NCBI GenBank assembly: GCA_003220005.1
Contig: QHRD01000021.1
Span: 1 to 33,818 of the forward strand
Length of the DNA stretch: 33,818 bases
Source of the DNA: Verrucomicrobiota bacterium
Lineage (GTDB): Bacteria; Verrucomicrobiota; Verrucomicrobiia; Chthoniobacterales; UBA10450
Reading direction: 5' to 3'
Shown here in pieces: positions 6,693-32,278 of this stretch (its first letter is position 1; each line of letters begins with the position of its first letter). The notes below the pieces were generated by a model. It did not search any database and had not been told where the DNA came from. It saw only the letters and a list, made by a program, of their open reading frames with translations. The translations under genes and the position numbers were made by a program.

Positions 6693-7583
6693 GTGGAAGA
6701 CTCGATCGATTCATTTATCCGTTTCCTCGCAGTCGAGCGCGGTCTTTCTGAAAATTATCAGCTTTCTACGCAACGATCGCTGAGCGAATTCGCGCAATGG
6801 TGCGCCGCCAAGAAGAAAATCAATAAACCGCGCGCGGTGACTCTACCGGTGATCAGCGAATATCTTGCCGATCGCAAACGCGCGGGCCTTTCTGCCTCGT
6901 CGATCAAGCTGATCGTGGTTGCATTGAAGATTTTTTTCCGCTTCCTGGGAGGTAAGGGGATCATTGAGCGCGATCCGGCTGAGGCCGTGGCGCTCCCGCG
7001 CATTGAGCGTTATCTTCCGGAGACGCTCAACGAATTGCAAGTGGAGCAATTTCTGGAGAAGATCGACACGAAAGCTGTTCACGGCTTGCGCGATCGTGCG
7101 ATGATCGAACTGCTTTACGCAAGCGGCTTGCGCATTTCCGAGGTGGCAAATGCGCGCCTGGAGAATTTCAATTTCGATGAGCGCGTTGTCCGGGTGACTG
7201 GGAAAGGAAGCAAGACCCGCCTGGTGCCGGTGGGTCGAAAAGCGTGCGAAGCGCTGGCAGCCTATCTCTCCACAGAGCGGCCGAAACTTTTGAAGCGGCG
7301 TAGCGGTAGCGAAATTTTTCTCTCGGCGCGAGGCACTAAATTAACCACAGCGCGCCTCTGGCAGATCGTAAAAAAACACGCGGCCGGCGCCGGACTGGAG
7401 AAGAACGTTTACCCACACCTTCTTCGACACAGTTTCGCGACGCATCTGCTCGGGAACGGCGCCGATCTGCGGATCATTCAGGAGATGCTGGGCCACGCCG
7501 ATATTTCCACAACGCAAGTCTACACGCACGTCGATCAACAGCGGCTTAAGGCTGTGCATCGCCAATTTCATCCGCGGGCATGA
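6693..7583 (+). CDS. xerD: tyrosine recombinase XerD (site-specific chromosome dimer resolution)
   Basis: The 296-residue XerC/XerD family recombinase resolves chromosome dimers at dif together with its partner. The N-terminal SAM-like core-binding domain covers residues ~1-90. The catalytic domain has Arg147 (SGLRISEV), Lys171 (GKGSKTR), His242-x-x-Arg245 (HLLRHSFATHLL), His268 (LGHAD) and the nucleophile Tyr277 (VYTHV). All six positions are intact. The start is GTG at 6693, placed because the conserved N-terminus begins here; upstream sequence is a palindromic element. Length and the IERYLPETL segment fit XerD better than an integron or phage integrase. No att-like repeats or cargo genes flank it, so a housekeeping role is likely. 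Confidence 0.92.
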   Translation: MEDSIDSFIRFLAVERGLSENYQLSTQRSLSEFAQWCAAKKKINKPRAVTLPVISEYLADRKRAGLSASSIKLIVVALKIFFRFLGGKGIIERDPAEAVALPRIERYLPETLNELQVEQFLEKIDTKAVHGLRDRAMIELLYASGLRISEVANARLENFNFDERVVRVTGKGSKTRLVPVGRKACEALAAYLSTERPKLLKRRSGSEIFLSARGTKLTTARLWQIVKKHAAGAGLEKNVYPHLLRHSFATHLLGNGADLRIIQEMLGHADISTTQVYTHVDQQRLKAVHRQFHPRA

Positions 7584-10604: not shown

Positions 10605-11945
10605 TTGCTGTTGAGCGGCCTTCTTTGGCTATTCACCACGACGGGAGGACGGCAGATCTTCGTTAAGGAGGTGCTCGGTGGCGCCTACGATTCGCAGGCG
10701 GAACATTTTCTGCGCGGGAATGTGGACGTCGATGTGGAGGCGATCGGGCATGAAGCGATGATCGTGAACGGTAAGGTACGAATGTACTTTGGACCGTTTC
10801 CGGCGCTCCTCCGTATCCCTCTAAATTCCGTTTGCCAAGCGGGACACGGGAAATGGTCGCGGATTTCAGGATTTTGCGCGGGCGTCATCGCGCTGTTTGC
10901 TTTCGCCGGTCTGATGCACCTGGCGTTGCAATCATCCCCGCTTTCATCGCGCGCTCGCAATTGGCTTGGCAACGCGTGCCTGATCGGGTTCGCGTTCGGT
11001 TCACCGTTGCTTTTGCTGCTCGGGAATCTTTCCATCTATGATGAAGCGATTATCTGGGGGCTGGCCTTATCACTGGGCGCAATCTTTTTCGCGTTCCGCT
11101 CGCGGCAGACCGAGGGCGGCGTACTGACGCACGCATTGCTGGGATTCTCGCTCTGTGCCGGGGGCGCTCTGCTCTCCCGTGCCACGTTCGGCGCGCCGTT
11201 CGTCCTGATCGCGCCGTTACTCGCTCTGGGACTGCCGCGGGCGAATCGATTAACCAATCTCACCGCGCTGGTTCTCCCGCTCGGCGCCGCACTCATCTTT
11301 TACATTTGGCTAAACTACGCAAGATTCGGCAGCCTCACTGGAGTGAACTACTACGACTACTACATCAACGAGGTTCATAGGGAGTTTGCCCATAAATTTG
11401 GGGTGTTCAGCCCGCGCCGGATATTCCACAGTTTTGCTGACTACTTCGGTGTGCGTTTCCCAAGCTTCGAACGCGAACCGCCTTTCCTAGCGACAGATCG
11501 CCATTTCTATGACTATCCCTCGCTCTATTCAAACGATTTGAGCGAGGTATATCTCCCTCTCACGTGGTGTTCTGGCTGGCTTGTCTTCGGCGCCGTCATG
11601 GGAATTACCTGTCTGGTTCGACGCGATGGCGTAGGCGCATTCGAGCGCGGCGCGGCTGCGGCTCTCTTTGCCCAATTTCTTTGCATCTTATCGTTTTTTG
11701 CGCTCGCCCAGCGTTACGCTGCTGATCTCTATCCTTTCCTAATCTTCAGCTTCATTATCTTTCTCCGATCGGGCGGCACGGCCTTAGTCCGGTCACGCCA
11801 TGTGATCATTGGACTCGTCTGTATCTCGATTGCTGTGAATTCGCTTGCGACGGTTTCCTGGTTGATCGGTCCAGATCAAAACGTCCCGTCGGAGACCAGA
11901 ACTGCCTGGGAAAAACTCCTGGGACGGCATTCGTTTGAAAAGTGA
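10605..11945 (+). CDS. multi-spanning membrane protein, GT-C-like, unknown specificity
   Basis: About 446 residues with roughly ten hydrophobic segments. The first helix (LLSGLLWLFTTTGG) is followed by a large extracytoplasmic loop with YDSQAEHFLRGNVDVD and GKVRMYFGPFPALLRIPLN. This layout (helix, acidic loop, 'GPFPAL..P') resembles GT-C lipid-linked sugar transferases and related membrane proteins. No ATG precedes the first helix. The start is TTG at 10605 or a non-ATG codon up to CTG at 10566, since the frame is open back into nuoA. The stop TGA (11943-11945) overlaps the next gene's GTG, so the two are coupled. Function not proven. Confidence 0.65.
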   Translation: MLLSGLLWLFTTTGGRQIFVKEVLGGAYDSQAEHFLRGNVDVDVEAIGHEAMIVNGKVRMYFGPFPALLRIPLNSVCQAGHGKWSRISGFCAGVIALFAFAGLMHLALQSSPLSSRARNWLGNACLIGFAFGSPLLLLLGNLSIYDEAIIWGLALSLGAIFFAFRSRQTEGGVLTHALLGFSLCAGGALLSRATFGAPFVLIAPLLALGLPRANRLTNLTALVLPLGAALIFYIWLNYARFGSLTGVNYYDYYINEVHREFAHKFGVFSPRRIFHSFADYFGVRFPSFEREPPFLATDRHFYDYPSLYSNDLSEVYLPLTWCSGWLVFGAVMGITCLVRRDGVGAFERGAAAALFAQFLCILSFFALAQRYAADLYPFLIFSFIIFLRSGGTALVRSRHVIIGLVCISIAVNSLATVSWLIGPDQNVPSETRTAWEKLLGRHSFEK

Positions 11946-13222
11946 AGATGACAATCATGATAGCTCTTGCGAGGCGTGACGCTGTCCGACAATTTTGGAT
12001 CGCAGCTGGCCTTTCACTGTTCGCCACGCTTGCCTTCTATTTTTCGACGAATGCCACGCTGCGCGATCTGGATTACACCAGCGAGATCGCTTCGGCCCTT
12101 CTACGTGGCGACTTGGGTCTTCGCGAAAAACCGCCCGAGTGGCTCAACGAAATGATTCCGCACGGAGACAGATATTATTCAGCCTTTCCGTTAGGAGCGG
12201 TCCTCAGCATGGTTCCGATTGCTCTCCTGCAGAAAGCAGGGTTGATCCATGACTTTCCCGGACGTGTCCTGGCAGCGGTCATTGCTGGTTTGTGCGTTTA
12301 CTTCTTTTTTCAGCTGACAAAGGCGTTCGGAGCGGATTACGTCAACCACAAGAGCACAGCGTTAGCTCGCCGGATTTTGATGGCGCTGGTTCCAATTTTT
12401 GGAACGTGGACATGGTGCAATCTCGGATTTGGCGGCGCATGGCAAATAGCTCTCGGCCTGGCTCTGCTGGGCCAAACCGCGGCGCTTTATTTTTCCCTGG
12501 TGCGGCCATCTCCCTTCGCCGCCGGAGCGTTTTTTACTCTGGCTTTTGGCAATCGAACCGAGCTGCTGATCAGTCTGCCTCTTTACCTTTATTTTCTCTG
12601 GCGTCAGCCGAGTGGGAACGGGTTCAGTTGGTTTCGCATTCGCGAGATCAAACGGGCGTTTTTGGAAAATGTGCCGATGCTTACCCGCTTCCTAAGCGTA
12701 CCGGTAATGCTAGCCTTTTTGACCGCCGCTTATAATTTCGCGCGGTTTCATTCCATTTTCGATTTTGGCTACATTCACATCCCGGAGGTTCATGAGGAAC
12801 CCTGGTACACACACGGGCTGTTCTCGATCCAGGCGATTCCGTGGAACATCTACACGATGCTGTTTCAAGGGTTCGAGAGTATTGACTACTTCCCATATAT
12901 CCAACCAAACGGGTTTGGCTGCTCAATCTTCCTTGCCAGCCCTTTTCTTTGCCTCCTTTTTCGCCAGGGCGGCAGATACAAGATGACTGCATGGATGGCG
13001 ATCGCCGTCTTGACGCTCGTCCTCTGGTGTCATGGTAACCCCGGAAGCTGGCAGTTTTCATATCGCTACGCGATGATTCTCATTCCCTGGATGTTTCTCC
13101 TGCTCACAGGCAACGGCCCGGCAAAAATAACGGTCAGCGAGATTTTCCTTTTCGCCGTCTCAGTGTTGATCAATGCAACCGCCATGTGGCAGTTCCTTTG
13201 GACCGACCAAATCCAGCCCTAG
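11942..13222 (+). CDS. multi-spanning membrane protein, GT-C-like, unknown specificity
   Basis: About 426 residues with some ten hydrophobic segments. The first periplasmic loop has LRDLDYTSEIASALLRGDLG, then GDRYYSAFPLGAVLSMVP, a pattern seen in GT39/GT83-type GT-C glycosyltransferases (acidic residues in loop 1, then 'Y..fP.G'). Later loops include FGYIHIPEVHEEPWYTHG and FEYFPYIQ-like aromatic stretches (here FESIDYFPYIQPNGFG). GTG at 11942 overlaps the previous stop (GTGA); ATG at 11948 is an alternative. The downstream spacer is 213 bases, so this gene may close the first transcription unit. It is probably a paralogue of the preceding gene by topology. Confidence 0.65.
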   Translation: MKMTIMIALARRDAVRQFWIAAGLSLFATLAFYFSTNATLRDLDYTSEIASALLRGDLGLREKPPEWLNEMIPHGDRYYSAFPLGAVLSMVPIALLQKAGLIHDFPGRVLAAVIAGLCVYFFFQLTKAFGADYVNHKSTALARRILMALVPIFGTWTWCNLGFGGAWQIALGLALLGQTAALYFSLVRPSPFAAGAFFTLAFGNRTELLISLPLYLYFLWRQPSGNGFSWFRIREIKRAFLENVPMLTRFLSVPVMLAFLTAAYNFARFHSIFDFGYIHIPEVHEEPWYTHGLFSIQAIPWNIYTMLFQGFESIDYFPYIQPNGFGCSIFLASPFLCLLFRQGGRYKMTAWMAIAVLTLVLWCHGNPGSWQFSYRYAMILIPWMFLLLTGNGPAKITVSEIFLFAVSVLINATAMWQFLWTDQIQP

Positions 13223-13291
13223 CGAGGTTCGCTGTTTGCCGGAAATTTCATAAGCCAATCACATCGCGGCACGACCGGAGAATTGCAAAAC

Positions 13292-13303
13292 GCAAAATTT
13301 TGC
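13292..13303. promoter_or_regulatory. 12-bp AT-rich palindrome in spacer before the GT-C/NHL genes
   Basis: GCAAAATTTTGC is a perfect palindrome within the AT-rich part of the 13223-13435 spacer. The surrounding TTGCAA...GAATAT-like bases could form a weak promoter for the downstream genes. No firm -35/-10 assignment is possible by eye. Confidence 0.3.
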
Positions 13304-13435
13304 ATCGCGAATATTTTTGCAGCAGTCTGTCCTTCTCTCTGCAGTTAAAAAAAGGTTTTGGACATGTTTGACGGAAGAAACCACCCGTTTAGGGTTTGCG
13401 CCTGTGTCGTCCGCTGAAGTAGAAAGAATTTGGGT

Positions 13436-14239
13436 ATGCCTGCTCTGATTTATTTGGGATTGGCTATTTGTGTTGGCGATTTTTTCTGCCGGCGCTTTTA
13501 CCGGTTCGAATCTGTCGCACACCGTTGTGCAGCGGCCATACTCTCAGGGTTGTTAATCAGCACGTGGTTTACGTATTTGGCGGGACTACTCTTTACGCGC
13601 GCCAGACAGCCGCTCATATGGGGTAATCTCTTGTTCGGCGTCGCAGCGATTGCTGTCTTGTCGTGGAGCAAGTGGAAACACAAAGTCATAAAGCGGGCGC
13701 AGGGCGAAAGTCACACCACTTTTGTCGCCAGCACATACCTGCAACGGCCTAAGGGTTCAGGCATAGCTGACTGGTTACTCATAGGCGGATATGTGGTGCT
13801 CGTATCCTGGATGATGTTTGCCTCCTTCAATACCAGCGGCACCAGGCTGCAGATTTCCAATGCCGAGTACAGTGATTTCGGGCCTAACACTGCGATCATG
13901 CAGAGCTTCGCCGTGGGGCATAACTTTCCCACAGAATATCCACATTTCTCAGGGGACCGCATCCGTTACCACTTCCTCTTCTACTTTCAGGCGGGAAATC
14001 TTGAATTCCTCAGGCTCAATCCGGTGTGGAGTCTTAACCTTCTGAGCATCGTCACGTTGGTGGCAATGCTCGTATTGGCGATGACCCTCGAGGAGGTCGT
14101 TTTCAATTCCCGCGCGGTTGGGCGACTGGTCAGTCCGTGCTGCGATTCAAGCCATCAGACAACGCGGCGATTTTCTTCCGAGCATCTTCCCGTATCGTGG
14201 CGACCAGTGGGGGACCTGGTCGCAGGTGACTTATCTTAA
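13436..14239 (+). pseudogene. N-terminal membrane fragment of frameshifted GT-C/NHL fusion gene
   Basis: This frame encodes the first several membrane helices of a GT-C-like protein. Loop 1 reads ISNAEYSDFGPNTAIMQSFA, with PHFSGDRIRYHFLFYFQAG after it; the acidic YSDF is where GT-C enzymes keep their catalytic Asp. The pattern also recalls DUF2298-type membrane proteins. Meaningful sequence ends near FNSRAVGRL (about 14124). The remaining codons to 14239 are out of frame with the continuing protein, which resumes at 14118 in another frame. An in-frame TTG exists at 13430; ATG at 13436 is preferred. Together with the next entry it should form one protein of about a thousand residues. Confidence 0.7.
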
Positions 14240-16475
14240 TCAGCGCCATTTCGCCAGCACGATAGGAATACTGCTGCTCGTTTTGATTTTTCTGGTCATC
14301 CGCTATCGCATGCGACCACCGAAACGAGCTAAGCTTGCGCTTTCTCCTGAGCCCGTTCCAGTGCAGCCAAACCCGTCCTCCGAAATCGTGGGAATTACGG
14401 GTTCCGAAGCTGCTACTCGGTCCGAAAACGTTTTAGAACCGACAGGCGACGTCGCTTCGGCGGAACTGATCGCGGCGCAGCCGAATCCGTCTTCCGAAAT
14501 TGCAGGGGTTACGGGTTCCGACGCTGCAACTCGGCCGCAAGATCTTCTAGAACCGAGAGGGGACTTCACATCGACTTCGATCGCGACAGAACCAAAAGAA
14601 GAAGTAGTCGTTCCCGCCGAGCGCTTTCGCGACACGTTGCCGGGTTTCATCTTTTCTGGAGTGCTGCTTGGTCTCCTGCCGATGTGGAACAGTGCAGTGT
14701 ATATCGGCGCAGCCGCTGTTTTGGGAGCGTTGTTCGTCCTGTTCTCGCTGCGGCTTCAGATGCTGGCGCTCGCGATCCCCGCAGGCCTGATCGCGCTTCC
14801 GCAGATGCTGTATCTGACTGGCGGAAGCGGAAGGATCCCCATGCCGCGCCTTATTCATTGGGGCTACACAATTGACCAGCCCACGGCAGCGAACGTATTG
14901 AAGTATCTTGGGTTTACCTTTGGCTTTAAGTGGTTGTTAATCGCCCTGGCGCTGGTTTTCGCGAATAACCTGCAAAGGCGCCTATTCCTGGCAGTTTCAA
15001 GTCTCCTTGCAGTTGCCTTTTGTTTCCAGTTCACGATTGAGGTACTCGCCAACCAGAAGTTTATACACACTTGGGTAATTGTTGCGAACCTGTTCGTCGC
15101 CTTCGGTCTCTGGCGTCTCTGGCGTCTCTCATTGGTCGGGACTACGGTACCTGGAAAACTCGTTGCGAGTGCCCTGTTCTTGCTAATCATTCCGGGCGGC
15201 GTCATCGATTTCTTTCCCATTCACAACACTGGCTGGAGCGAAGTAACGTATCGGAACGACCCGTTGATCGACTGGCTGAAAAAAAATACGACTCCGCGTG
15301 ACATCTTTCTAACGGATCGATTTGTTAATCATCCTATCCTGATGGCTGGCCGACGGGTCTTCTACGGCTGGCCTTACTATTCGTGGGGGGCCGGTTACGA
15401 CGCTGCTAAGCGCGATAAGGTTTATACAGAACTGTTTGAGAGCAAGGACCCATGGAAAGTGTATCATCTCTTGAAAGAGAACGGCATTGCCTACGTGGCA
15501 TACGATAACGCTGTTCGCCAGGCTCAGTTTATCAGGCGACCGAATCAAGAGTTATATGCGACTTATTTTCCGAAGGTATACGATGCCACTCAGTACAACG
15601 GGATGATTATTTACAAGGTGCCTGACACACCGCCGCCTAAACTCAGTTCCCTGCCTGAGAGTGTCAGTAACATGTTTGAAGGCGGTAAGGGGACAGGGAA
15701 AGGAGAATTTGATTTGCCGGCTGGCATTGCTGTTGATGGCAATGGGAATGTTCTGGTCGCTGACACAAACAATAGGCGCATCGAAAAGTTCTCGCCTACG
15801 GGTTCGTTTCTAACCATCATAGGGCAGGGAGAACTAGCAGCACCTAACGGCATCGCTGTTGACCGCAACGGCAATTTGTATGTAGCGGATGCTGGCAATC
15901 ACCACGTGCAAAAGTTGGCCCCTGACGGGACATTTATCGCTGAGTGGAAGGGACCCGACGCCGGATTCTATGGGCCGCGTCGCGTCGCGATTGGATCGGA
16001 TAACTCCATCTACGTCGTCGATCAGGGCCATACACGAATTGTTAAGTTCAACCCTGATGGACAGGTGCTGACGATGTGGGGCAGTAAAGGGAATGGCGAC
16101 GGGCAGTTCGACGATCCTGCCTCGGTCGCGGTTGATCCCGCTACCAATAAAGTTTACGTCGCCGATCCACGTAACGGTCGGATTCAGGTCTTTGACTCGG
16201 ACGGGAAGTTTCTAACCAAGTGGCTAATCCCTGAATGGAAAGGAAAGCCATATGGCTTCGAAGACTTGGCCATAGATTCGAAGGCGGGTCGATTATACGC
16301 GTCAAGCACCAATATAAATGCAGTATTCATTTTTGACTTGAATGGCAACAGGATTGGGAGTCTGACGCCGAAGCCACCGGATCAACTCGAAGGACCATCA
16401 GCTCTAGCGTTGACAGATCGGAAACTCTACGTCTTGAACATGTTCGGCAATCACGTGAGCGTCATCGATCTGTAA
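14118..16475 (+). CDS. C-terminal part of GT-C-like membrane protein fused to NHL beta-propeller
   Basis: This 785-residue frame continues the preceding membrane protein (RQRGDFLPSIFPYRGDQWGT, LNQRHFASTIGILLLVLIFL). It adds about eight more hydrophobic segments, a tandem-repeated loop (14364-14591) and a soluble region with NTTPRDIFLTDRFVNHPILM, as in GT-C C-terminal domains. From residue ~524 (15687) it is an NHL six-bladed propeller: GIAVDGNGNVLVADTNNRRI, GIAVDRNGNLYVADAGNHHV, VAIGSDNSIYVVDQGHTRIV, VAVDPATNKVYVADPRNGRI and so on. The propeller is about three quarters identical to that of the next gene. The first ATG here (14118) may or may not be used; the true gene probably starts at 13436. 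Expected location: membrane, with propeller outside the cytoplasm. Confidence 0.75.
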   Translation: MGDWSVRAAIQAIRQRGDFLPSIFPYRGDQWGTWSQVTYLNQRHFASTIGILLLVLIFLVIRYRMRPPKRAKLALSPEPVPVQPNPSSEIVGITGSEAATRSENVLEPTGDVASAELIAAQPNPSSEIAGVTGSDAATRPQDLLEPRGDFTSTSIATEPKEEVVVPAERFRDTLPGFIFSGVLLGLLPMWNSAVYIGAAAVLGALFVLFSLRLQMLALAIPAGLIALPQMLYLTGGSGRIPMPRLIHWGYTIDQPTAANVLKYLGFTFGFKWLLIALALVFANNLQRRLFLAVSSLLAVAFCFQFTIEVLANQKFIHTWVIVANLFVAFGLWRLWRLSLVGTTVPGKLVASALFLLIIPGGVIDFFPIHNTGWSEVTYRNDPLIDWLKKNTTPRDIFLTDRFVNHPILMAGRRVFYGWPYYSWGAGYDAAKRDKVYTELFESKDPWKVYHLLKENGIAYVAYDNAVRQAQFIRRPNQELYATYFPKVYDATQYNGMIIYKVPDTPPPKLSSLPESVSNMFEGGKGTGKGEFDLPAGIAVDGNGNVLVADTNNRRIEKFSPTGSFLTIIGQGELAAPNGIAVDRNGNLYVADAGNHHVQKLAPDGTFIAEWKGPDAGFYGPRRVAIGSDNSIYVVDQGHTRIVKFNPDGQVLTMWGSKGNGDGQFDDPASVAVDPATNKVYVADPRNGRIQVFDSDGKFLTKWLIPEWKGKPYGFEDLAIDSKAGRLYASSTNINAVFIFDLNGNRIGSLTPKPPDQLEGPSALALTDRKLYVLNMFGNHVSVIDL
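14364..14591 (+). repeat. 114-base tandem repeat (two copies) in hydrophilic loop
   Basis: Copies 14364-14477 and 14478-14591 encode two 38-residue units, each starting QPNPSSEI, then GITGSEAATR or GVTGSDAATR, then LEPTGD or LEPRGD. It lies in a hydrophilic, probably disordered loop between membrane helices of the GT-C/NHL protein. Confidence 0.8.
15687..16475 (+). repeat. NHL propeller module, copy 1 of a duplicated pair
   Basis: This segment, from KGTGKGEFD to VSVIDL and the stop, is paralogous to 18623-19423. By eye about 77% of aligned residues agree. Many identical DNA runs remain, while blade 2 is six residues shorter here (GQGELAAPNG against GNKGTGRGQLGEPNG). Confidence 0.85.
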
Positions 16476-16630
16476 CCGGCGGAACTCATCTCACAAATGG
16501 CGCTGTGATGTTGAGCCTTTGGATTTCACTCAGGACGGGCTCCGCGAAACATTTCTGATCTGGTTCCGGTGGGCGATCGTTCCAAAATTGATCTGAGATC
16601 CTTCCCTTCGCTCAGAAGGACATTAAGGCT

Positions 16631-19423
16631 ATGAAGTTAGTTCTGGGAAAATCGCAGGTTCTTACACCGAGGATTGTTCTATTCGGATTGTCAGTCATTA
16701 GTCTGGCGATTTGCGCCTGGGCTGGCGCGGCGCACTATCGGAAAGCCGCTTGGGCAGATCCGTGGCAACCGATCGGCTGGCTGCTTAGCATGCTCTTTTT
16801 GCTGGCAGCCTTTTTCCCCAGCCGGGAACGGCTCGCAACCGGTTTCAAATCTCTAATAAAGCCGAAGCCAGCGTTCTTTCTGTTCTGGATTCTCTTCTTC
16901 GTAGTGTCGCACCTGTGGAATTTTCGCACCGCGCCTTGGAATGGAGACGCTCTTTTTGACGAGTCCGGTTGGGATCTCTGGTTCTTGAAGAGCCATGTTA
17001 TCGGTCATCCATATCAAGCGGCCTGGTTTCACCCTCCTGTCCTCGCGCGTGAGACGCTGTTTCATTACTATGTGTGGAGTTTTCTCAGGTTATTCGGCTT
17101 TAACATCCTGGTATATCAAGCAGCGCTATTTTGCATCTGGCTAACGACATTTGTATTCACCATTCTGTTAGTTGACCTGTTTTTTGAGTCTTACATCGTC
17201 ACTTCTGTCACGGGGGTGGTTTTTAACTTTCTGCCGTTTGCGTTCATTTACACCTTTGCCGGGTATCGCTATCCGATGGCAGTGGCTTTCGCCGTTGTCT
17301 CTCTCTACTTTCTGCATGTAGGGTTCAGAAATGGTTCGCTATTTTGCCTGTCGCTAGGCGGCCTCGCCGCAGGCCTGTGCCTGGCCAGCTCCATATCCGG
17401 CAAACAGTATCTTGTGGGACTTGCGGTGGTAGCACCGCTGTACGCTCTGTTTTATGGGAGGAGCCTAGGACGAAAGGAGACATGGAGTTCGCTCGCCGTA
17501 TCCGTTTATGGATTTCTTGCGGCTGCCACTCCGATCTTTCTGTACATCGTCTTCAATCGAAATGACTATACGCTGTACGAGGCGGCCTTTCTCCGGGACT
17601 TCTGGCACGCGATGCAGTCAGCTCCGTTTCCCAATGGAATAAGGCCATTTACCAAGCAGCTTTACGACTGTTTTTTTGGTGTACCCGGTCCTCGGTTCTT
17701 TATTCCAGATACTTTGCCTATTCCATTGCCATACTATTGGCTGTTAGTCCCTGGGTTCGTGCTCGCGCTCTGGCAGAAGCGGTTTGAAATCGCACTGCTG
17801 GCCATAGTTCCTGTCGGGGGTGCTTTTATTGCAAGAGCCATAGAGAACCGCCTCCTTCTGCCAATCCCATTTTGGGTAATCCTGATAGGCTTCACGTTTG
17901 CCGGGATATTGAAGCTGCGGCGGTGGCCAAGCGTTCAAATTGTTCTTGGCGCTGTAGCAGCATTGATACTGCTAAACGGCCTGGTTCCATCCGTTCGCTA
18001 CATTTACAGCAAAACCAAAAATCGATTCGGGATCCGCTACTACGCGCAAGAGGAGGTGGCTGTGTCACGGTTTTTGAAACACGTTGTTGCGGGTGAACAA
18101 CATCCCGCTTCTCCCCACTTGGAACGCAACGAGTTCAACCGGATCAAAGGCGTTCCCGATCCTAGCTACGACACGTTCATCTGCCAGGCCGCCGCCTATT
18201 CAATTATTCACCTGTTTTTGCATGATTACGATGACGATAAAATCCTGTCTTTTTGTGCCGAGTATCCCTTCGAGGTTGTCCAGAGCGAGCAAGATGTATG
18301 GGATGCGAATAAAAGGGCCATTGCCAGTTACGTTCCGAGTAACAAAGATTTGAAGGTGATCTGGGAACGCCATCCAAAGACCGAGAGAATAATCAACAAA
18401 TTCCGGTCGCTCCGTGATCTTGGGACAGAAGATTCGCTTTCATATTCCTTTGTGGGAAGAGTAAGGACGTTTTACGTACTGAACATTCCTAGCAAAAACA
18501 TTCGACTGTTTCAGCAAGGTGTGGCTGCGTTCCCTGCAACTCCGGAGCTTGGTGTGGGCGCGTCCCCTGCAACCCCTGAGGGTACCTTACCCGAAAGGAT
18601 AACTGACACGTCCAAAGGTAGGAAGGGAACCGGCACGGGGCAATTTGATTCACCGACTGGAATTGCTGTTGATGCTAATGGAAATGTTCTGGTCGCCGAC
18701 ACAAATAAGGGTCGCATCGAAAAGCTCTCGCCGACGGGTACGTTGCTCAGCAGCATGGGAAATAAGGGCACTGGGCGGGGACAATTAGGAGAACCGAACG
18801 GCATCGCTGTTGATCGTGCCGGCGATATCTATGTCGCGGATGCTTCGAATCATCGTGTGCAGAAGCTGGCTCCCGACGGCACGTTCATCGCCGAGTGGAA
18901 AGGACCGGAACCTGGATTTTATGGACCGCGCCGTGTCGCAATTGGCCCCGATGGCTCTGTTTATGTCGTCGATCAGGGTCACAGTCGCATTGCTAAGCTT
19001 ACCCCCGACGGACGGGCGCTTTCGACTTGGGGCAACAAAGGAAATGGCGACGGCAAGTTTGACGATCCAACTTCGGTCGCCGTCGATTCCACGACCAATA
19101 AAGTTTATGTCGCTGATCCGCGGAACAAACGGATACAGATTTTCGACCAGAATGGGAAGTTTCTCAGTAAATGGTCGGTGCCCGAATGGGGAGAAGCGGT
19201 GGGCTTTGAAGATTTGGCTATCGACTCGCAAACAGGCCGGCTATACGCGTCCAGCGCACATTTGACCGCCGTTTTTATTTTTGATTTGAACGGAACCAGG
19301 ATTGGCAGCTTAACGCCAAAGGCACCGGATAAACTCGAAGGACCATCAGCTCTGGCTTTGTTTGATCGGAAGCTTTATGTGCTGAACATGACTGGCAATC
19401 GTGTAAGCGTGATCGATCTGTAA
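16631..19423 (+). CDS. GT39-like (PMT/ArnT type) membrane glycosyltransferase fused to NHL beta-propeller
   Basis: A 930-residue fusion. Residues 1-~470 have about twelve hydrophobic segments. The first large loop carries WNGDALFDESGWDLWFLKSH, with Asp110-Glu111 at the catalytic DE position of GT39/GT83 enzymes, followed by GHPYQAAWFHPPVLARETLF. A soluble region (~480-640) then leads through an 11-residue tandem repeat (18518-18583) into an NHL propeller (665-930). The blade motifs are GIAVDANGNVLVADTNKGRI, GIAVDRAGDIYVADASNHRV, VAIGPDGSVYVVDQGHSRIA and VAVDSTTNKVYVADPRNKRI. GT39 enzymes transfer sugars from polyprenyl phosphate at the periplasmic face, so the propeller should be periplasmic. 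Start ATG at 16631 has AGAAGGA upstream. It is followed 12 bases later by another GT-C-like gene. Confidence 0.8.
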   Translation: MKLVLGKSQVLTPRIVLFGLSVISLAICAWAGAAHYRKAAWADPWQPIGWLLSMLFLLAAFFPSRERLATGFKSLIKPKPAFFLFWILFFVVSHLWNFRTAPWNGDALFDESGWDLWFLKSHVIGHPYQAAWFHPPVLARETLFHYYVWSFLRLFGFNILVYQAALFCIWLTTFVFTILLVDLFFESYIVTSVTGVVFNFLPFAFIYTFAGYRYPMAVAFAVVSLYFLHVGFRNGSLFCLSLGGLAAGLCLASSISGKQYLVGLAVVAPLYALFYGRSLGRKETWSSLAVSVYGFLAAATPIFLYIVFNRNDYTLYEAAFLRDFWHAMQSAPFPNGIRPFTKQLYDCFFGVPGPRFFIPDTLPIPLPYYWLLVPGFVLALWQKRFEIALLAIVPVGGAFIARAIENRLLLPIPFWVILIGFTFAGILKLRRWPSVQIVLGAVAALILLNGLVPSVRYIYSKTKNRFGIRYYAQEEVAVSRFLKHVVAGEQHPASPHLERNEFNRIKGVPDPSYDTFICQAAAYSIIHLFLHDYDDDKILSFCAEYPFEVVQSEQDVWDANKRAIASYVPSNKDLKVIWERHPKTERIINKFRSLRDLGTEDSLSYSFVGRVRTFYVLNIPSKNIRLFQQGVAAFPATPELGVGASPATPEGTLPERITDTSKGRKGTGTGQFDSPTGIAVDANGNVLVADTNKGRIEKLSPTGTLLSSMGNKGTGRGQLGEPNGIAVDRAGDIYVADASNHRVQKLAPDGTFIAEWKGPEPGFYGPRRVAIGPDGSVYVVDQGHSRIAKLTPDGRALSTWGNKGNGDGKFDDPTSVAVDSTTNKVYVADPRNKRIQIFDQNGKFLSKWSVPEWGEAVGFEDLAIDSQTGRLYASSAHLTAVFIFDLNGTRIGSLTPKAPDKLEGPSALALFDRKLYVLNMTGNRVSVIDL
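18518..18583 (+). repeat. 33-base tandem repeat in linker before propeller
   Basis: Two 33-base units (18518-18550, 18551-18583) encode GVAAFPATPEL and GVGASPATPEG. They form a short Pro/Ala linker between the soluble membrane-proximal domain and the NHL propeller. Confidence 0.75.
18623..19423 (+). repeat. NHL propeller module, copy 2 of a duplicated pair
   Basis: Paralogous to 15687-16475 on the same strand, 2.9 kb apart. Similarity begins at KGTGTGQFD and ends at the stop codon. The membrane parts of the two host genes are not recognisably similar, so the module itself was copied or homogenised. Confidence 0.85.
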
Positions 19424-19435
19424 CTAGCCGATCAC

Positions 19436-21154
19436 ATGAACATTTCTCTTAAACTGTTTCGTTTGCCGATCAGGCTAACGGCCCGTTTGTTTTCCGCGGC
19501 AAAACCGTTGCCACATTGGATGATGCTGGGCCTGGTTGTTATCCTGTGCCTTCTCGAAACTGCAGCTTATCGTACCCACGGCGCGTTTCCTGTTATTGCC
19601 AGCCGCGCATGGGCATTGATGGGCGTGGCTTATTTCGGGGCTACAGGGATGTTAATCGCAGGCTCCCTGTTAAGTGACTTGCGGAGGCGGAGTTGTGTTT
19701 TTGCAATACTGGTTGTCGCCTTGGGCATAATGGTGTTTTACAGGCTGGGTGACATCTATCACTTACAAATTAATTATGAATCAGCTACACAACTTGCGAG
19801 TTTCCTGAAATTTAATATTCATAAGCCCGATTGGGGATACACTGGCAATGCGTTTGTGGGATATCCGGCCCGGCAGTTTATTATTGTAGCTATTCCAAGC
19901 CTTCTTTTCGGAAATGAGGTGCTTTGGCTCCAGTTCGGCTATGCCATTCTTTTTTACTCGGGTGGTCTGTGTTTCTTTCTCGGGGTACGCCATTATTTTG
20001 CGACCAAACAACATGGCGAACTATGGGCGCTTTTTACGGTACTTTCCTGTTTCACTTTTCCTTATGTGATCCGATACCTGTACAATATGGAGCAGATCAT
20101 TCTGCCTATAGCCTTGGTTATGCATGCCATGGGCTGGTTTTTGCTCAGTCTGGAAAAGTTGACCGCGCCTAGGGTTCTCATTCTAGCTTGGATTTGCGGC
20201 TTGCTCGGCACATCTTACACCCCGGGTCTAGCCGCCTGGGCATTGTTTCAAATTTTCTTTTTTTTGGTCATTGTGCAGGCAGCGCGTCAAGAGCGTCGGG
20301 GACAAATCGTTTTATGGGTTTCGGCTTGGGCCTATACATTGACAGTCGGACTTTGCTCCTTTGTTACTCGCATAGATGTCCGTTTGGTACCAAAACCCGC
20401 ACATTCTGCAGGGTCTCTGCTGACAGCCCTGAAAGTGTTCTTTCTGGGGCAGCCGACAGAGTATATGCCTCCTGTGCTTGCTATTTTCGTGGCAATGTTT
20501 TTCCTGCTAGCTTTAACAGGACGCATTGGATTCATCAAATGGATTACTGCGGTGTGGTTCCTGGCTGTAATTTATTTTTCAGCGGCTTCGGCGGGATATA
20601 CGCAGTATGATCCTGTGTACACGCTGTACCGATCGATATTGCTGATTCCCGTTATGATGCTTGCCTGTTGGGACAGTTACCTCGACATCTTCAAGAAATT
20701 CAAACAATGGAAACACGCTGGGCCAATTCTTGCCGTTATCTTATGCCTGGCTGCCGCTGCCGCTGCTACTCACGTGTATTTCGAGCGGCAAAAGAGTTAT
20801 GGACCATCAAGTAAGGAGTTTTTTATTTCATTTTTGTTGAATCGAGCGGAATCCGCTGGTATTCGCCGCAAGCCGGCTATTTTGATTTCCCAGACCAACC
20901 AAGTCACCTATCACCCTATTCAGGGTTATGGCGAGTATTTTTTTCCTTTATGGCAAATGTGCATTCTTCCGGTCGATAGCCCGAAGTTCGCCCATCCAAC
21001 GCAATCACAACCGCTGGTCATCATTACAGATAGCGAGATCGCCCATAAAAACTTTTTACCTGCCGGATGGACCGGAACGGATGAGATAACGTACCTGGAT
21101 GTGTACCGACGAAGATTTCCGGTGCGCTATGGTCTCTATCGATACTCCCCCTAA
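19436..21154 (+). CDS. multi-spanning membrane protein, GT-C-like, unknown specificity
   Basis: A 572-residue protein with about twelve hydrophobic segments and a soluble C-terminal ~120 residues. Loop 1 carries LGDIYHLQINYESATQLASF and, after it, GYTGNAFVGYPARQFIIVAI, a placement consistent with GT-C proteins, though no DE or DD motif is evident. The C-terminal part (RKPAILISQTNQVTYHPIQG; LVIITDSEIAHKNFLPAGW) resembles the soluble domains of the neighbours, but it lacks a propeller. Its ATG is 12 bases after the previous stop, so it is probably co-transcribed with the NHL fusion gene. Its base composition looks more AT-rich than the genes near the window ends. Function unknown; partner role in glycan transfer is inferred from position. 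Confidence 0.65.
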   Translation: MNISLKLFRLPIRLTARLFSAAKPLPHWMMLGLVVILCLLETAAYRTHGAFPVIASRAWALMGVAYFGATGMLIAGSLLSDLRRRSCVFAILVVALGIMVFYRLGDIYHLQINYESATQLASFLKFNIHKPDWGYTGNAFVGYPARQFIIVAIPSLLFGNEVLWLQFGYAILFYSGGLCFFLGVRHYFATKQHGELWALFTVLSCFTFPYVIRYLYNMEQIILPIALVMHAMGWFLLSLEKLTAPRVLILAWICGLLGTSYTPGLAAWALFQIFFFLVIVQAARQERRGQIVLWVSAWAYTLTVGLCSFVTRIDVRLVPKPAHSAGSLLTALKVFFLGQPTEYMPPVLAIFVAMFFLLALTGRIGFIKWITAVWFLAVIYFSAASAGYTQYDPVYTLYRSILLIPVMMLACWDSYLDIFKKFKQWKHAGPILAVILCLAAAAAATHVYFERQKSYGPSSKEFFISFLLNRAESAGIRRKPAILISQTNQVTYHPIQGYGEYFFPLWQMCILPVDSPKFAHPTQSQPLVIITDSEIAHKNFLPAGWTGTDEITYLDVYRRRFPVRYGLYRYSP

Positions 21155-22277: not shown

Positions 22278-23354
22278 TTAGCTGGCCAAGGTGGAAGTCG
22301 TCTCTGTTCGCATGTTTTCCGAAGCGCGCAAGAGTTTCTCATCCCTGTGGCTGCTGAGAGTTTCTGCAACGACGTAGCGCGGGCGATATTTAACTTCCTG
22401 GTATATTTGAGCGATATAAGTGCCAATGATGCCCAGGCTAATCATTAAAACGCCACCTATCAGCAACTCGAGTATGATGACGGTGGTAAACCCAGGAAAC
22501 GCTAGGCCGATAAAATACATCACCAGCACGTAAATCGAGAATGTGATCGCGCCGAGAAGGAAGAGTCCGCCGAGAATCGTGACTGCTTGCAGTGGCAACG
22601 ACGAAAAGGCTGTGATGGCGATGACAGCTAACCGGAAAAGGCCCAGAAAAGACCAGCGTGACTGCGTCAACCGTCGCCTTGGTACCGAAAAGGTTACCTG
22701 CTTTCGACGATATCCAAGCCAGCTAATCATGCCTCGAAAGAAAGTGTTGCGCTCACGCATATGCAGCCATGCATCAATGACTTTGCGGTCCAGAAGCTTG
22801 AAGTCTGAGTACCCGTACAGGTTGTAACCTGAAAGACCGCTCAAGGTGCGATAAAAGAAACGGGCACCGACTCGATTGATTAGCGGCTCCGAGCCTCGCG
22901 TTTTCTTTATCCCTTCCACGATGTCCCAATGCTCTTGCCTCCAGAGCCGAACCATTTCAGGAATTACCTCGGGAGGGTGCTGCAGATCGGAGTCTATTAC
23001 GATGCATGCTTGGCCGGATGAGTACGCCAGTCCTGCACAGATTGCTGCTTCCTTTCCAAAATTCCGGCTAAACCGGAGCGCCTTTAGTTCCGGCATCTGC
23101 TCAGCTACCTTTTCCAGGGCTTGCCAAGTGCTATCCGCCGAGCCGTCATCAATGGCGATCATCTCCATGGGCAATCCTGTCTTCGATGCTTCCGCGTGTA
23201 TGAGAGACAGATTCTGAGCTATTTGGTCGGTCTCATTGTGTACGGGGATTACAACCGAAAAAATTACGTCGCTCTCCTGGCGCTGAGGAGATTCTGTTGC
23301 AAGAGGCTGGCCGCAGAGCCTGCAATGCCAGTCGTGTTGGCCCAACGCATGCAT
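22278..23354 (-). CDS. polyprenyl-phosphate glycosyltransferase (GT2, GtrB/ArnC/DPM1-like)
   Basis: A 358-residue GT2 enzyme expected to load a sugar from a nucleotide donor onto polyprenyl phosphate at the inner membrane face. Visible motifs are VVIPVHNE (34-41), DDGSADSTW (69-77), and the metal-binding DSDLQHPPEVIPEM (121-134). Also visible are FSRNFGKEAAICAGLAY, TQSRWSFLGLFRLA (the QxxRW-type acceptor motif), and two C-terminal membrane helices in the final ~100 residues. The first 20 residues contain a single Cys-x-x-Cys (HCRLCGQPL, Cys11/Cys14), like half of a zinc ribbon; this is unusual for the family. Its presence opposite the GT-C genes fits the donor-synthase plus transferase pairing of Gtr/Arn systems. 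Confidence 0.88.
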   Translation of the reverse strand: MHALGQHDWHCRLCGQPLATESPQRQESDVIFSVVIPVHNETDQIAQNLSLIHAEASKTGLPMEMIAIDDGSADSTWQALEKVAEQMPELKALRFSRNFGKEAAICAGLAYSSGQACIVIDSDLQHPPEVIPEMVRLWRQEHWDIVEGIKKTRGSEPLINRVGARFFYRTLSGLSGYNLYGYSDFKLLDRKVIDAWLHMRERNTFFRGMISWLGYRRKQVTFSVPRRRLTQSRWSFLGLFRLAVIAITAFSSLPLQAVTILGGLFLLGAITFSIYVLVMYFIGLAFPGFTTVIILELLIGGVLMISLGIIGTYIAQIYQEVKYRPRYVVAETLSSHRDEKLLRASENMRTETTSTLAS

Positions 23355-27880: not shown

Positions 27881-28534
27881 CTATTGCGGTTGCTCGCGCA
27901 AAAGATGGTTCGTGTCAGCGACCAATTTCGTTACTGCGTCGGCTTCCGTCGCATCGTAATAACCGCGGATTTGGCCATGTCGATCCACGAGCACCACCCG
28001 CGTGCTGTGCACGGGAATCCCCTGGGCATCTCTGCCATCAGATATTGCGAGTTTGAAGCCATCATGCGAAAGCTTGTAGATCACAGATTTTGGTCCCGTG
28101 AGAAAATCCCAACGGCCCGGCTCTGCTTGCAATCTCTCCGCGTAGTGGCGCAAAACCTCCGGAGTGTCTTTGTCCGGATCGACACTGAACGAAACCAGAT
28201 GCACGTCAGTTTTCTCCAACGGCTTTTGCAATTCGCCCATTCGGCTGCTGATCATCGGGCACGGCCCCGGACAGGTTGTGTAAACGAAATCGGCGATCCA
28301 GATCTTGCCAGTTAATTGCGGTGAACCAAATGGTTGTCCGTTCTGATTGGTGAGCTGAAAAGGCGGGACTGTGCCGTAAGAGGAAACAGTGCGCCGCCGG
28401 AGCGCGTTCATTTCCACGTTCCGCAGCCATAGCAACACTCCCAGCGTCACCAGCGGGATGAGAATCAGCGTCGCTTTCCAGATGATGCCGCTGTAGGACG
28501 GCGTCCGCTGCATCGTCGCAGAAGTCGTGCTCAT
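27881..28534 (-). CDS. sco: SCO1/SenC family copper chaperone for cytochrome oxidase
   Basis: SCO proteins deliver copper to the CuA site of oxidase subunit II or keep its cysteines reduced. The 217-residue product has one N-terminal membrane anchor (~18-37) and a thioredoxin-like domain. It keeps the copper ligands Cys88 and Cys92 (TTCPGPCPMISS) and His176 (GIPVHSTRVVLVDRHG). All three are present, so it should be active in the periplasm. ATG at 28534 overlaps the ctaB stop (ATGA). It is the last gene of the cox operon and faces the inverted repeat and rmlA. Confidence 0.93.
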   Translation of the reverse strand: MSTTSATMQRTPSYSGIIWKATLILIPLVTLGVLLWLRNVEMNALRRRTVSSYGTVPPFQLTNQNGQPFGSPQLTGKIWIADFVYTTCPGPCPMISSRMGELQKPLEKTDVHLVSFSVDPDKDTPEVLRHYAERLQAEPGRWDFLTGPKSVIYKLSHDGFKLAISDGRDAQGIPVHSTRVVLVDRHGQIRGYYDATEADAVTKLVADTNHLLREQPQ

Positions 28535-29430
28535 GATTTCGTCAAAACCAAAGCTCCCAGTAACAGTGGAAGATAAATGATCGACGCGAAGAACAGCAAA
28601 CGCGCTGCGCTTGCCGTCCGCATCCGCAGAAATCGCATTGCAACGGCAACGAATAAACCCCCGAGCAAAAGTTCGATTGCCAGATAAATAAAATTCGCGA
28701 TTCCAAGAAACGCCGGCAGGCCCGCGATTACCAGTAGCAGGATGCAGAAAAACACGCTCTGGCTGGCGCTGCGCTCGCCGCTGAGGTCATCGCTCGAAAT
28801 CATGCGAAATCCTGCGCGAGAATAGTCTTCCCGATACATCCATGCGATGGCGAAGAAGTGTGGCAGTTGCCACAGAAAAACGATCGCAAAGAGAGCCCAC
28901 GCTCCCGCGCCGATGTTTCCGCGCGCGGCCGCCCATCCGATCATCGGAGGAATCGCACCCGGGACTGCGCCTACCGCGGTGTTAGCGGTGCTGGCGCGTT
29001 TTAGGGGAGTGTAAGCAAGAATGTAAATCGCGATCGTTATTGCTGTCAGCGTTGCACTGAGGGCGTTGCAAACGAGTGCCAGATAACCGACTCCAAAAAT
29101 CGACAGCGCGGCGCCGAGGGTTAGCCCTTGCAACGGCGGCATTCGCCCCGCGGGTATCGGGCGCGCCTTCGTGCGGCGCATCAGCGCATCGGCTCTGCGT
29201 TCCCACCATTGGTTGAGCGCAGCTGCGCCCGCTGCGGCTGCCGCCGTCCCGAATACAACGTGAAAAAGTGCGACGTAATTGATCGGTGATTCCGATCCGA
29301 GATAGAAGCCGACAACGGTCGTAAGCAGCACTAGCAGCGTCAATCGCCCTTTGACGAGCTCCGCGAGATCCGCAACGACGCGATTCCGCGACGGCGCCGC
29401 GTTCGTGTTTTCCAGCGCAGCTGTTTTCAT
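28531..29430 (-). CDS. ctaB: protoheme IX farnesyltransferase (heme O synthase)
   Basis: CtaB/CyoE attaches a farnesyl group to heme B, giving heme O for the oxidase. The 299-residue UbiA-family protein has about nine membrane helices. The prenyl-diphosphate motif appears as NQWWERRADALMRRTKARPI, a variant of the more usual N-D-x-x-D-x-x-x-D form with Glu in place of the first Asp. The second conserved loop has AYTPLKRAS and GAVPGAIPPMIGW, then WMYREDYSRAGFRM. Start and stop overlap ctaA and sco by four bases each, so the three genes are translationally coupled. Confidence 0.93.
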   Translation of the reverse strand: MKTAALENTNAAPSRNRVVADLAELVKGRLTLLVLLTTVVGFYLGSESPINYVALFHVVFGTAAAAAGAAALNQWWERRADALMRRTKARPIPAGRMPPLQGLTLGAALSIFGVGYLALVCNALSATLTAITIAIYILAYTPLKRASTANTAVGAVPGAIPPMIGWAAARGNIGAGAWALFAIVFLWQLPHFFAIAWMYREDYSRAGFRMISSDDLSGERSASQSVFFCILLLVIAGLPAFLGIANFIYLAIELLLGGLFVAVAMRFLRMRTASAARLLFFASIIYLPLLLGALVLTKS

Positions 29431-30572
29431 GCAATTCGTCCCCGTTGGTAGGGACGGCGCGCCGCGTCGTCCGGACGCCGCAGCGCGACGTCTCTACCTA
29501 TCCGTGAAATGCGCCAGCAAATCGCCGAAATGCTCACACCAAAAGATAGCGTGACCGCGCCGAGCGCGACATGCGCGGTCGTGACATCGGCTGCTTTATT
29601 GCTCCAGATCGTCCAGGCACCCAGCGCAATCTGGCAGATGAACAGCGCAAGCCAAAGGATCGAAAGTTTCTTAAGCGCTGCAAAACGCGGCGAATCTCGC
29701 AAAACGCGAACGGCAAACGCGATTATAGCGATAGCGATGATCAACGCGAGAAAACGGTGCGCCATTTGCAACCAGATTTGGAATGCGGTCACATCCGATA
29801 AGCCGCGAGCGTCGCGCCACGCGTTGATTTTCGCGAGAGCGGCCGCGCCGGTGTCCGGGATCCACGCGCCGTTAGCTGTTGGAAAATCAAGGATCGACAG
29901 ATCGCGATGTTGGTGGCGCATCGTTGCGCCGAGAGCGAGCTGCACGTAGATCGCAATCGTGGTGGCGAAAACAAGCAACCTAAGCGGCGTAAGCCGCTGC
30001 GAAACTTGACTGCTTAAAGCAGTCGAGTTCGCTTGCTCTTGTCCACGCGATCGCGTCGTTGCCTCGACGACCGAGGCCGGAAGATGTCGCCAGAAATTTG
30101 TCGTCACCAGCGCAATCACTACGAGCAGCCCGAGAAATGCCTGCGCAACACAGGCGTGAAAGATGCCGATTTCAGCTTTCATCATTGTGACGCGAAGCCC
30201 GCCGAGAATTCCCTGTAGGATCACGCCGGCGAGCGCGATCACGCCCAGGATACGCGCCCATTGCCGATCTTCGCTGAGCCAAAGCCAGACAGCGAGAATG
30301 ATGGTCAAAAATCCAACCAGCGAGCCCATCAACCGATGGGTGTGCTCGAACAAAATTCCGCCTACCCATTTTGAGACCGGAAACAAAAACATGTTGTAGC
30401 CGAATGTGGTCGGCCAATCCGGCACGGCGAGCCCGACATTTTTGCTGGTGACCATCCCACCGCTGCAAATGAGTAAGAGCGTCGCGACGCATGTGAGCCA
30501 CGCGAAACGATTGAGCCATTTGCTGGAGCGGCGTTCTACGACCGCCGAGTTTTCTGACGTCGACTGTCGCAT
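29427..30572 (-). CDS. ctaA: heme A synthase (COX15/CtaA)
   Basis: CtaA oxidises heme O to heme A for the terminal oxidase. The ~381-residue product has eight predicted helices in two halves with the heme-ligand histidines in FEHTHRLMGS, IGIFHACVAQA, QMAHRFLAL and TTAHVALGAV. A GTG at 30590 is in frame, but it lies inside a hairpin repeat; ATG at 30572 is preferred. The loop between the halves (RGQEQANSTALSSQVSQRLT) is encoded by two adjacent palindromes (29983-30024). The last ~20 residues (RDVALRRPDDAARRPYQRGR) come from another palindrome (29447-29498). These parts look like captured repeat DNA and are not family sequence. Confidence 0.93.
   Translation of the reverse strand: MRQSTSENSAVVERRSSKWLNRFAWLTCVATLLLICSGGMVTSKNVGLAVPDWPTTFGYNMFLFPVSKWVGGILFEHTHRLMGSLVGFLTIILAVWLWLSEDRQWARILGVIALAGVILQGILGGLRVTMMKAEIGIFHACVAQAFLGLLVVIALVTTNFWRHLPASVVEATTRSRGQEQANSTALSSQVSQRLTPLRLLVFATTIAIYVQLALGATMRHQHRDLSILDFPTANGAWIPDTGAAALAKINAWRDARGLSDVTAFQIWLQMAHRFLALIIAIAIIAFAVRVLRDSPRFAALKKLSILWLALFICQIALGAWTIWSNKAADVTTAHVALGAVTLSFGVSISAICWRISRIGRDVALRRPDDAARRPYQRGRIA
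29447..29498. repeat. 52-base near-perfect palindrome over ctaA 3' end
   Basis: Left arm 29447-29472 and right arm 29473-29498 match in 22 of 26 positions as inverted copies, centred on TCCGGA. The outer ends are GGTAGGGACG and CGTCTCTACC. It is translated as the Arg-rich C-terminus of CtaA and ends about 16 bases from the ctaB start. Confidence 0.75.
29983..30024. repeat. two adjacent hairpins inside ctaA
   Basis: AGCGGC (29983-29988)/GCCGCT (29993-29998) with loop GTAA is followed by GACTGCT (30008-30014)/AGCAGTC (30018-30024) with loop TAA. The second is extended by CGAAaCT and AGTTCG outside. Both lie in the segment encoding the mid-protein loop. Confidence 0.65.
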
Positions 30573-30580
30573 TGACAATC

Positions 30581-30604
30581 CGGCGCTCACAGAGCGCCGC
30601 TACA
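30581..30604 (-). repeat. TGTAG-type hairpin between coxB and ctaA
   Basis: On the minus strand TGTAG is followed by stem CGGCGCTC, loop TGT and stem GAGCGCCG (plus coordinates 30581-30599 for the stem-loop). This is the same layout as the element at 4834-4857. It lies in the 41-base gap before the ctaA ATG. Confidence 0.55.
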
Positions 30605-30613
30605 GAAAGCCGA

Positions 30614-31477: not shown

Positions 31478-31724
31478 ATTTGCTCAGATCTTCCTCGGTG
31501 AGCTGCTGGTACGGCTCCTGCGGCATGCGTCCCTGCCGCCACAGGTGAAAACTGAACGCGCCGATTCCGCAAATGACCGAAAGAACCGCGCCAAAAAGGA
31601 ACCAGATCGCTACTGCCATGTGTTCGGTCGATTTTCCGTCCTTCGCGCCGTAGCAAAACGGGCATGCCAGCGCTTGCTGCGCGGCGAACAGGATCGTTAA
31701 CATCAGGATGGACAACGCTTTCAT
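31470..31724 (-). CDS. small membrane protein with exported CPFC motif in cox operon
   Basis: An 84-residue protein. MKALSILMLTILFAAQQALA is a signal-like helix, followed directly by CPFCYGAKDGKSTEH, a second helix (MAVAIWFLFGAVLSVICGIG) and a short acidic tail. The exported Cys-x-x-Cys resembles small proteins of the ACPVC-GA type encoded near respiratory genes in Verrucomicrobia and relatives. A redox or copper role in oxidase assembly is plausible but unproven. The ATG at 31724 overlaps the stop of the preceding small gene (ATGA), and the stop lies within the start of coxB. An upstream frame to 31862 exists but is not needed. Confidence 0.75.
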   Translation of the reverse strand: MKALSILMLTILFAAQQALACPFCYGAKDGKSTEHMAVAIWFLFGAVLSVICGIGAFSFHLWRQGRMPQEPYQQLTEEDLSKYE

Positions 31725-32275: not shown

Positions 32276-32278
32276 GGC

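What the first reader, a model, noticed from the sequence alone, without database searches (positions are those of the whole stretch)
13436..19423. GT-C-like membrane proteins carrying near-duplicate NHL beta-propellers
Two neighbouring genes end in NHL propellers that agree at about 77% of aligned residues by eye, down to the stop codon, while their membrane domains are not obviously alike. One has a GT39-type DE motif in loop 1. This points to a propeller module copied (or kept alike by gene conversion) between different transferases. If the GT-C active site faces the periplasm, the propeller would too, where it could hold the acceptor protein or glycan. I do not know this fusion as a described system.
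Basis: partly seen in the sequence, partly recalled or inferred. Interest (0 to 1): 0.72.

Follow-up and report, generated by a model that had tools for sequence, protein, structure and literature searches.

The report
Sugar-transferase-like membrane proteins sharing swapped propellers
In a group of common but uncultured soil bacteria, neighbouring membrane proteins that look like unrelated sugar-transferring enzymes carry the same propeller-shaped outer domain, and that domain has repeatedly been copied from one gene to another, which suggests an interchangeable docking part on the outside of the inner membrane.

Summary
Gene B (16631-19423) and gene A (13436-16475) end in six-bladed NHL propellers 71% identical over 287 residues (75% in DNA), while their membrane parts show no BLAST similarity and only a weak profile match around external loop 1.

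In Candidatus Udaeobacter-like MAGs the order E-D-A-B is conserved, and at least four sequence-dissimilar membrane types carry the same propeller subfamily. Propellers do not follow the membrane part they are attached to. B propellers are rejected as one clade (p-AU 4e-8). Silent-site divergence jumps at the propeller boundary in several orthologue pairs and reverses in another. Two adjacent unlike genes in a sister genus share 92.6% identical DNA over the propeller only. This is repeated module exchange, probably gene conversion.

Charge distribution puts both propellers in the periplasm. A conserved neighbour resembles ArnC/PgfS undecaprenyl-phosphate sugar transferases, the expected donor maker for GT-C enzymes. 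The GT-C fold itself could not be shown: Pfam, PDB profiles and AlphaFold were uninformative on the membrane parts. Best reading: periplasmic GT-C-like transferases sharing an interchangeable docking propeller; its ligand is unknown.

The parts
10605..11945 (+). gene E: polytopic membrane protein, 446 aa, no propeller
   Evidence: ORF; no Pfam family over cut-off; orthologues upstream of A in several congeners; remote similarity to D by hhalign
11942..13222 (+). gene D: polytopic membrane protein, 426 aa, no propeller
   Evidence: ORF; directly upstream of A in most congener loci
13436..14128 (+). gene A, 5' part: membrane domain with external loop 1 motif EYSDFGPN; frame lost at the deletion
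   Evidence: topology
14128..14129 (+). site of a 62-bp deletion relative to orthologues; causes the frameshift and removes much of one TM segment
14129..15670 (+). gene A, 3' membrane part: TM segments, variable cytoplasmic linker and external soluble domain (weak Dpy19 similarity)
15680..16475 (+). gene A: six-bladed NHL propeller
   Evidence: PF01436 E 1e-30; orthologue model
16631..18560 (+). gene B membrane domain: 13 TM, LFDESGWD in external loop 1, external soluble domain about residues 456-640
   Evidence: AlphaFold uninformative here
18617..19423 (+). gene B: six-bladed NHL propeller
   Evidence: PF01436 E 6e-32; pLDDT mostly 80-92 and Foldseek matches to NHL domains
19436..21154 (+). 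gene C: polytopic membrane protein, 572 aa, no propeller; not found in the relatives' loci
22278..23354 (-). GT2 with C-terminal hydrophobic stretch, PgfS/ArnC-like polyprenyl-phosphate sugar transferase, candidate donor maker
   Evidence: NCBIfam PgfS E 1e-68, ArnC (PRK10714) E 1e-42, below equivalog cut-offs; homologues in 15 fetched loci at 45% identity or more over most of the length

Best explanation
A locus of Udaeobacter-type soil Verrucomicrobiota encodes a row of polytopic membrane proteins that most likely are GT-C-class glycosyltransferases: a neighbouring ArnC/PgfS-like GT2 loads a sugar on a polyprenyl phosphate, the carrier is flipped, and the membrane enzymes transfer the sugar in the periplasm. 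At least four sequence-dissimilar members carry, after their external soluble domain, a six-bladed NHL propeller of one subfamily in the periplasm. The propeller segment is repeatedly copied from gene to gene by homologous recombination (gene conversion) limited to the shared segment, so it evolves as a common pool while the membrane parts evolve separately. It most likely serves as an interchangeable docking module for a shared acceptor or partner. Shown: shared propeller, exchange, conserved neighbourhood. Supported by sequence rules: periplasmic location. Inferred: GT-C activity and docking role.
For: Shared propeller on unlike membrane parts. A and B propellers intermixed in the tree; B propellers as one clade rejected, lnL 106.8 lower, p-AU 4e-8. 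Silent-site differences, membrane/propeller: B G053-G056 .23/.71, B G050-G060 .19/.45, A G063-G067 .36/.63, reverse in B G051-G067 .44/.07, equal in controls B G068-G074 .24/.24 and A G000-G067 .29/.29 (approximate Fisher p about 1e-8 to 1e-31 for the discordant pairs, 1 for the two controls). Identity falls near the propeller start. Adjacent A and X79 genes in G023 share 92.6% of 833 bp, in the propeller only; G063 A-B 92.5% of 226 bp. K+R in loops: A 23.5 inside against 10.4 outside; B 16.5 against 12.5. ArnC/PgfS-like GT2 near the cluster in many loci. Papers: acidic motif in the first luminal loop and 13 TM in STT3/DPY19 (PMC6801728); three-component periplasmic glycosylation and GT-C enzymes with extra extracytoplasmic CBMs (PMC11127046).
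Against: No Pfam or NCBIfam glycosyltransferase model matches either membrane part over its cut-off. PDB profile searches find no GT-C. AlphaFold gives about 30 pLDDT in the membrane parts, so the fold is untested. TM segments were placed by hand. No flippase gene was identified. Propeller conservation is highest in the NHL core strands, not on one face, so no ligand site is indicated. Data are MAGs; chimeric assembly could mimic some exchanges, and some contigs end inside propellers.
Confidence: 0.6

Rival explanations
1. Neutral homogenisation: the propellers descend from an old fusion copied once to each membrane gene, and exchange is only a by-product of nearby repeats, with no shared ligand or selection for interchange.
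For: Near-identical segments a few kb apart recombine anyway; conservation is concentrated in fold-maintaining positions rather than a surface patch.
Against: Propellers stay under purifying selection (A G000-G067 pN .037 against pS .29); every near relative of this propeller examined in the family with a complete gene is fused to a multi-TM protein.
Confidence: 0.25
2. The membrane parts are not transferases but other polytopic proteins (for example transporters or signal sensors), with the propeller as a periplasmic sensor like that of PknD.
For: No curated GT model matches; the fold is unresolved. In other genera of the class NHL propellers are fused to proteins that read as ABC permeases. 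PknD extracellular NHL is among the Foldseek hits.
Against: Acidic motif in a conserved external loop, 13-14 TM with external C-terminal domain, conserved ArnC/PgfS-like neighbour, weak Dpy19 similarity in two A proteins.
Confidence: 0.15
3. Exchange occurs mainly between species (horizontal recombination at the locus) rather than between genes of one genome.
For: B G051 and B G067 propellers are far closer than their membrane parts.
Against: G023 A-X79 (92.6%) and G063 A-B (92.5%) are within-genome, between unlike genes.
Confidence: 0.2
4. The mosaics are assembly chimeras in MAGs.
For: Several contigs end inside propellers; the window's own A gene has an unexplained 62-bp gap.
Against: Mosaics involve segments only about 62-78% identical, which should not be joined by k-mer assembly; the pattern recurs in many MAGs and two genera.
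Confidence: 0.07

Closest known systems
GT-C glycosyltransferases with appended extracytoplasmic modules (EmbA/B/C and AftD CBMs; GT136 ORF12 with CBM)
   Same: polytopic membrane part, external acidic loop and an extra extracytoplasmic accessory domain (PMC11127046)
   Different: accessory domain is an NHL propeller, shared by several dissimilar membrane types and exchanged between neighbours
TMTC1-4 and prokaryotic relatives (GT-C + C-terminal TPR)
   Same: GT-C N-terminal part, repeat domain at the C-terminus on the non-cytoplasmic side (PMC7801869)
   Different: TPR instead of NHL; no module exchange reported in the passages read
Three-component periplasmic glycosylation systems (GtrA/GtrB/Gtr; PgfS with PgfM)
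   Same: GT2 polyprenyl-phosphate sugar synthase next to polytopic transferases
   Different: several GT-C-like genes in a row, no flippase found, propeller added
DPY19 / TIGR03662 Chlor_Arch_YYY membrane families
   Same: weak sub-threshold similarity in the A family
   Different: far below curated cut-offs
NHL domains of TRIM2/TRIM71/Brat, PAL, PknD
   Same: six-bladed NHL fold
   Different: here predicted periplasmic and fused to polytopic membrane proteins

Membership tests
NHL / six-bladed beta-propeller | NHL repeats over the Pfam cut-off and six four-stranded blades | tested here: met
   PF01436 104.7 and 108.6 bits; DSSP of models; Foldseek to TRIM2 NHL E 9e-22
GT39 / PMT_2 (PF02366, PF13231) | match to the curated Pfam model | tested here: not met
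   no PMT hit for A or B
GT39 / PMT_2 (PF02366, PF13231) | acidic pair in external loop 1 | tested here: met
   B: DE in LFDESGWD, invariant in the eight sequences aligned
GT-C superfamily | 7-13 or more TM segments, acidic first external loop, external soluble domain | tested here: met
   positive-inside count with hand-placed TM segments; S-D-[FY]-G-P in loop 1 of A; description in PMC11127046 and PMC6801728
GT-C superfamily | GT-C fold | tested here: inconclusive
   membrane pLDDT about 30
GT-C superfamily | transfer from a polyprenyl-phosphate sugar | not testable with these tools
   only a neighbouring donor-synthase-like GT2
TIGR03662 Chlor_Arch_YYY | score over 300.25 bits | tested here: not met
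   12.3 bits; none at E<0.1 in 16 A-family members
Dpy19 (PF10034) | score over 27.2 bits | tested here: not met
   13.0 and 15.8 bits
ScyF (NF035926) | score over 350 bits | tested here: not met
   158.5 bits for B, 138.7 for A; fused to a TM domain and ending at the last blade, without a PEP-CTERM-like tail by eye
Three-component glycosylation system | polyprenyl-phosphate GT2 beside a GT-C | tested here: inconclusive
   PgfS E 1e-68, ArnC E 1e-42 (below equivalog cut-offs) and conserved neighbour; met only if A/B are GT-C
Three-component glycosylation system | dedicated flippase | not tested
   no GtrA/MATE-type gene was specifically searched for

The most novel reading that the evidence does not exclude
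A periplasmic propeller acts as a standard plug shared by several unrelated GT-C enzymes of one glycan or protein modification machine, and gene conversion keeps the plugs compatible with one common acceptor or scaffold while catalytic parts diversify.
Probability: 0.35. Interest if true: 0.75.

Novelty: new variant of a known kind. Interest (0 to 1): 0.55.

Why it matters
Membrane glycosyltransferases with accessory outer domains are known, but how several enzymes of one pathway find the same acceptor is poorly understood. A module that is shared by dissimilar membrane proteins and kept in a common pool by recombination is a natural test case: swapping propellers is what the genomes already do. 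It also concerns a very abundant, uncultured soil lineage whose surface glycans are hardly studied (abundance and lack of study from general knowledge).

Tried and rejected
Simple tandem duplication of whole genes: rejected, membrane parts unlike. Recent copy in this genome: rejected, silent sites about 60% different. Faster synonymous change in propellers in general: rejected by pairs with equal or reversed divergence. Curated families for the membrane parts (Pfam, NCBIfam) and PDB profiles: nothing over cut-off. AlphaFold of the membrane parts: uninformative. L029 and L033, first taken as GT-C-NHL fusions elsewhere, read instead as ABC permease-like plus lipoprotein-like NHL. A conserved propeller face: not seen. 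B membrane family outside the genus: none in 213 genomes of the order. A membrane family outside the taxonomic family: none in a 388-genome phylum sample, a sample that also held few family members. Papers on NHL-GT-C fusions or Udaeobacter NHL proteins: none found in the open-access library. Promoter/terminator scan: no more than chance.

Full report
1. The observation. Gene B (16631-19423, 930 aa) and the gene upstream of it both end in NHL propellers. BLASTP gives 71% identity over 287 residues and BLASTN 75% over 813 bp up to the stop codons; the membrane parts give no significant match. Pfam finds only propeller families over cut-off in both. AlphaFold models show six blades, mostly at pLDDT 80-92 in B and about 70-90 in an A orthologue, and Foldseek places the B propeller with NHL domains of TRIM2, Thin, TRIM71, Brat and PknD.

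2. Gene A is broken here. It is split into ORFs 13430-14239 and 14118-16475. Against the closest relative (G067, locus L065) the window lacks 62 bp at about 14128, which shifts the frame and removes much of one TM segment. Most orthologues are single ORFs of 940-1160 aa. Whether this is a real mutation or an assembly fault cannot be decided from one MAG.

3. Distribution. The window is contig 121 of a 2.5-Mb MAG. The closest records in the genome collection are soil Verrucomicrobia MAGs, one of them named Candidatus Udaeobacter. Among 83 genomes of the family 44 have a match to B at E 1e-10, many only to the propeller. Gene order E-D-A-B recurs. B-type membrane parts occur only in this genus in a 213-genome search of the order. 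A-type parts also occur in sister genera. Two further membrane types (X66 in G067, X79 in G023) and a shortened A variant (A') carry the same propeller subfamily.

4. Exchange. In the propeller tree A and B rows are intermixed; propellers of A in G063 and of B in G051 and G082 fall with those of A'. Holding the B propellers together costs 106.8 log units, p-AU 4e-8. Codon comparison of orthologues shows that propeller and membrane part have different histories: B of G053 and G056 differ at 23% of silent sites in the membrane part and 71% in the propeller; B of G051 and G067 show the reverse, 44% and 7%; other pairs agree. Approximate Fisher tests on these give p from about 1e-8 to 1e-31 for discordant pairs and 1 for the two concordant ones. 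Sliding identity changes near the propeller start. Within one genome, G023 A and the adjacent X79 gene are 92.6% identical over 833 bp, confined to the propeller, and G063 A and B 92.5% over the 226 bp present. This is gene-to-gene copying between unlike proteins.

5. Topology and likely activity. With hand-placed TM segments, positive charges averaged over orthologues favour for A an external N-terminus, 14 TM segments, loop 1 (EYSDFGPN) and the C-terminal domain outside (23.5 against 10.4), and for B an internal N-terminus, 13 TM segments, loop 1 (LFDESGWD) and the C-terminal domain outside (16.5 against 12.5). GT-C enzymes have an acidic motif in the first luminal loop, and STT3/DPY19 have 13 TM segments (PMC6801728). 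The profile match of A and B lies around this loop. A GT2 at 22278-23354 resembles PgfS (E 1e-68) and ArnC (E 1e-42), taken here as undecaprenyl-phosphate sugar transferases (ArnC by its model name, PgfS from general knowledge), though below the equivalog cut-offs; homologues lie beside the cluster in many loci, including sister genera. This is the arrangement of three-component periplasmic glycosylation (PMC11127046). The fold itself is not shown: membrane pLDDT is about 30 and no curated transferase model matches.

6. Role of the propeller. GT-C enzymes with extra external modules exist (CBMs in Emb, AftD and GT136; TPR in TMTC). By analogy a periplasmic propeller could hold the acceptor or a scaffold. 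Conservation does not single out one face, so this step is inference. Neutral homogenisation is the main rival.

7. Verdict. Real, more general than reported, and to my knowledge undescribed; no paper was found in the open-access library. I file it as a new variant of GT-C-like enzymes with accessory domains, not as a member of GT39, DPY19 or TIGR03662, whose model thresholds were not met.

Noticed in passing
L097-L109, L112, L113, L116; also L029 and L033: ORFs of about 780-1150 aa that read as ABC-transporter permease (ThiP/FbpB-like by eye) followed by an NHL propeller recur in many other Verrucomicrobiia genera: a separate, apparently widespread permease-propeller fusion.
   Followed up: partly
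window 10605-21154: Five consecutive polytopic membrane genes (E, D, A, B, C) on one strand without recognised membrane families; D and E are weakly related to each other.
   Followed up: partly
L061:8264-10405, L077:1752-3959, L060:1736-3763: A' variant keeps the propeller and the loop 1 SDFGP motif but has lost about 300 residues of membrane and soluble domain, and its RYHF motif is changed: possibly a degenerate enzyme.
   Followed up: partly
window 16476-16630: The 155-bp A-B gap has no match in the terminator consensus scan, so A and B may be co-transcribed.
   Followed up: no
window 6693-7583: Tyrosine recombinase/integrase gene a few kb upstream of the cluster.
   Followed up: no
window 28531-33136: Genes for UbiA-type prenyltransferase, CtaA, COX2 and COX3 (cytochrome oxidase and its assembly) border the glycan locus.
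   Followed up: no
L080:9044-11155: CHASE2-guanylate cyclase gene near the cluster in a sister genus.
   Followed up: no
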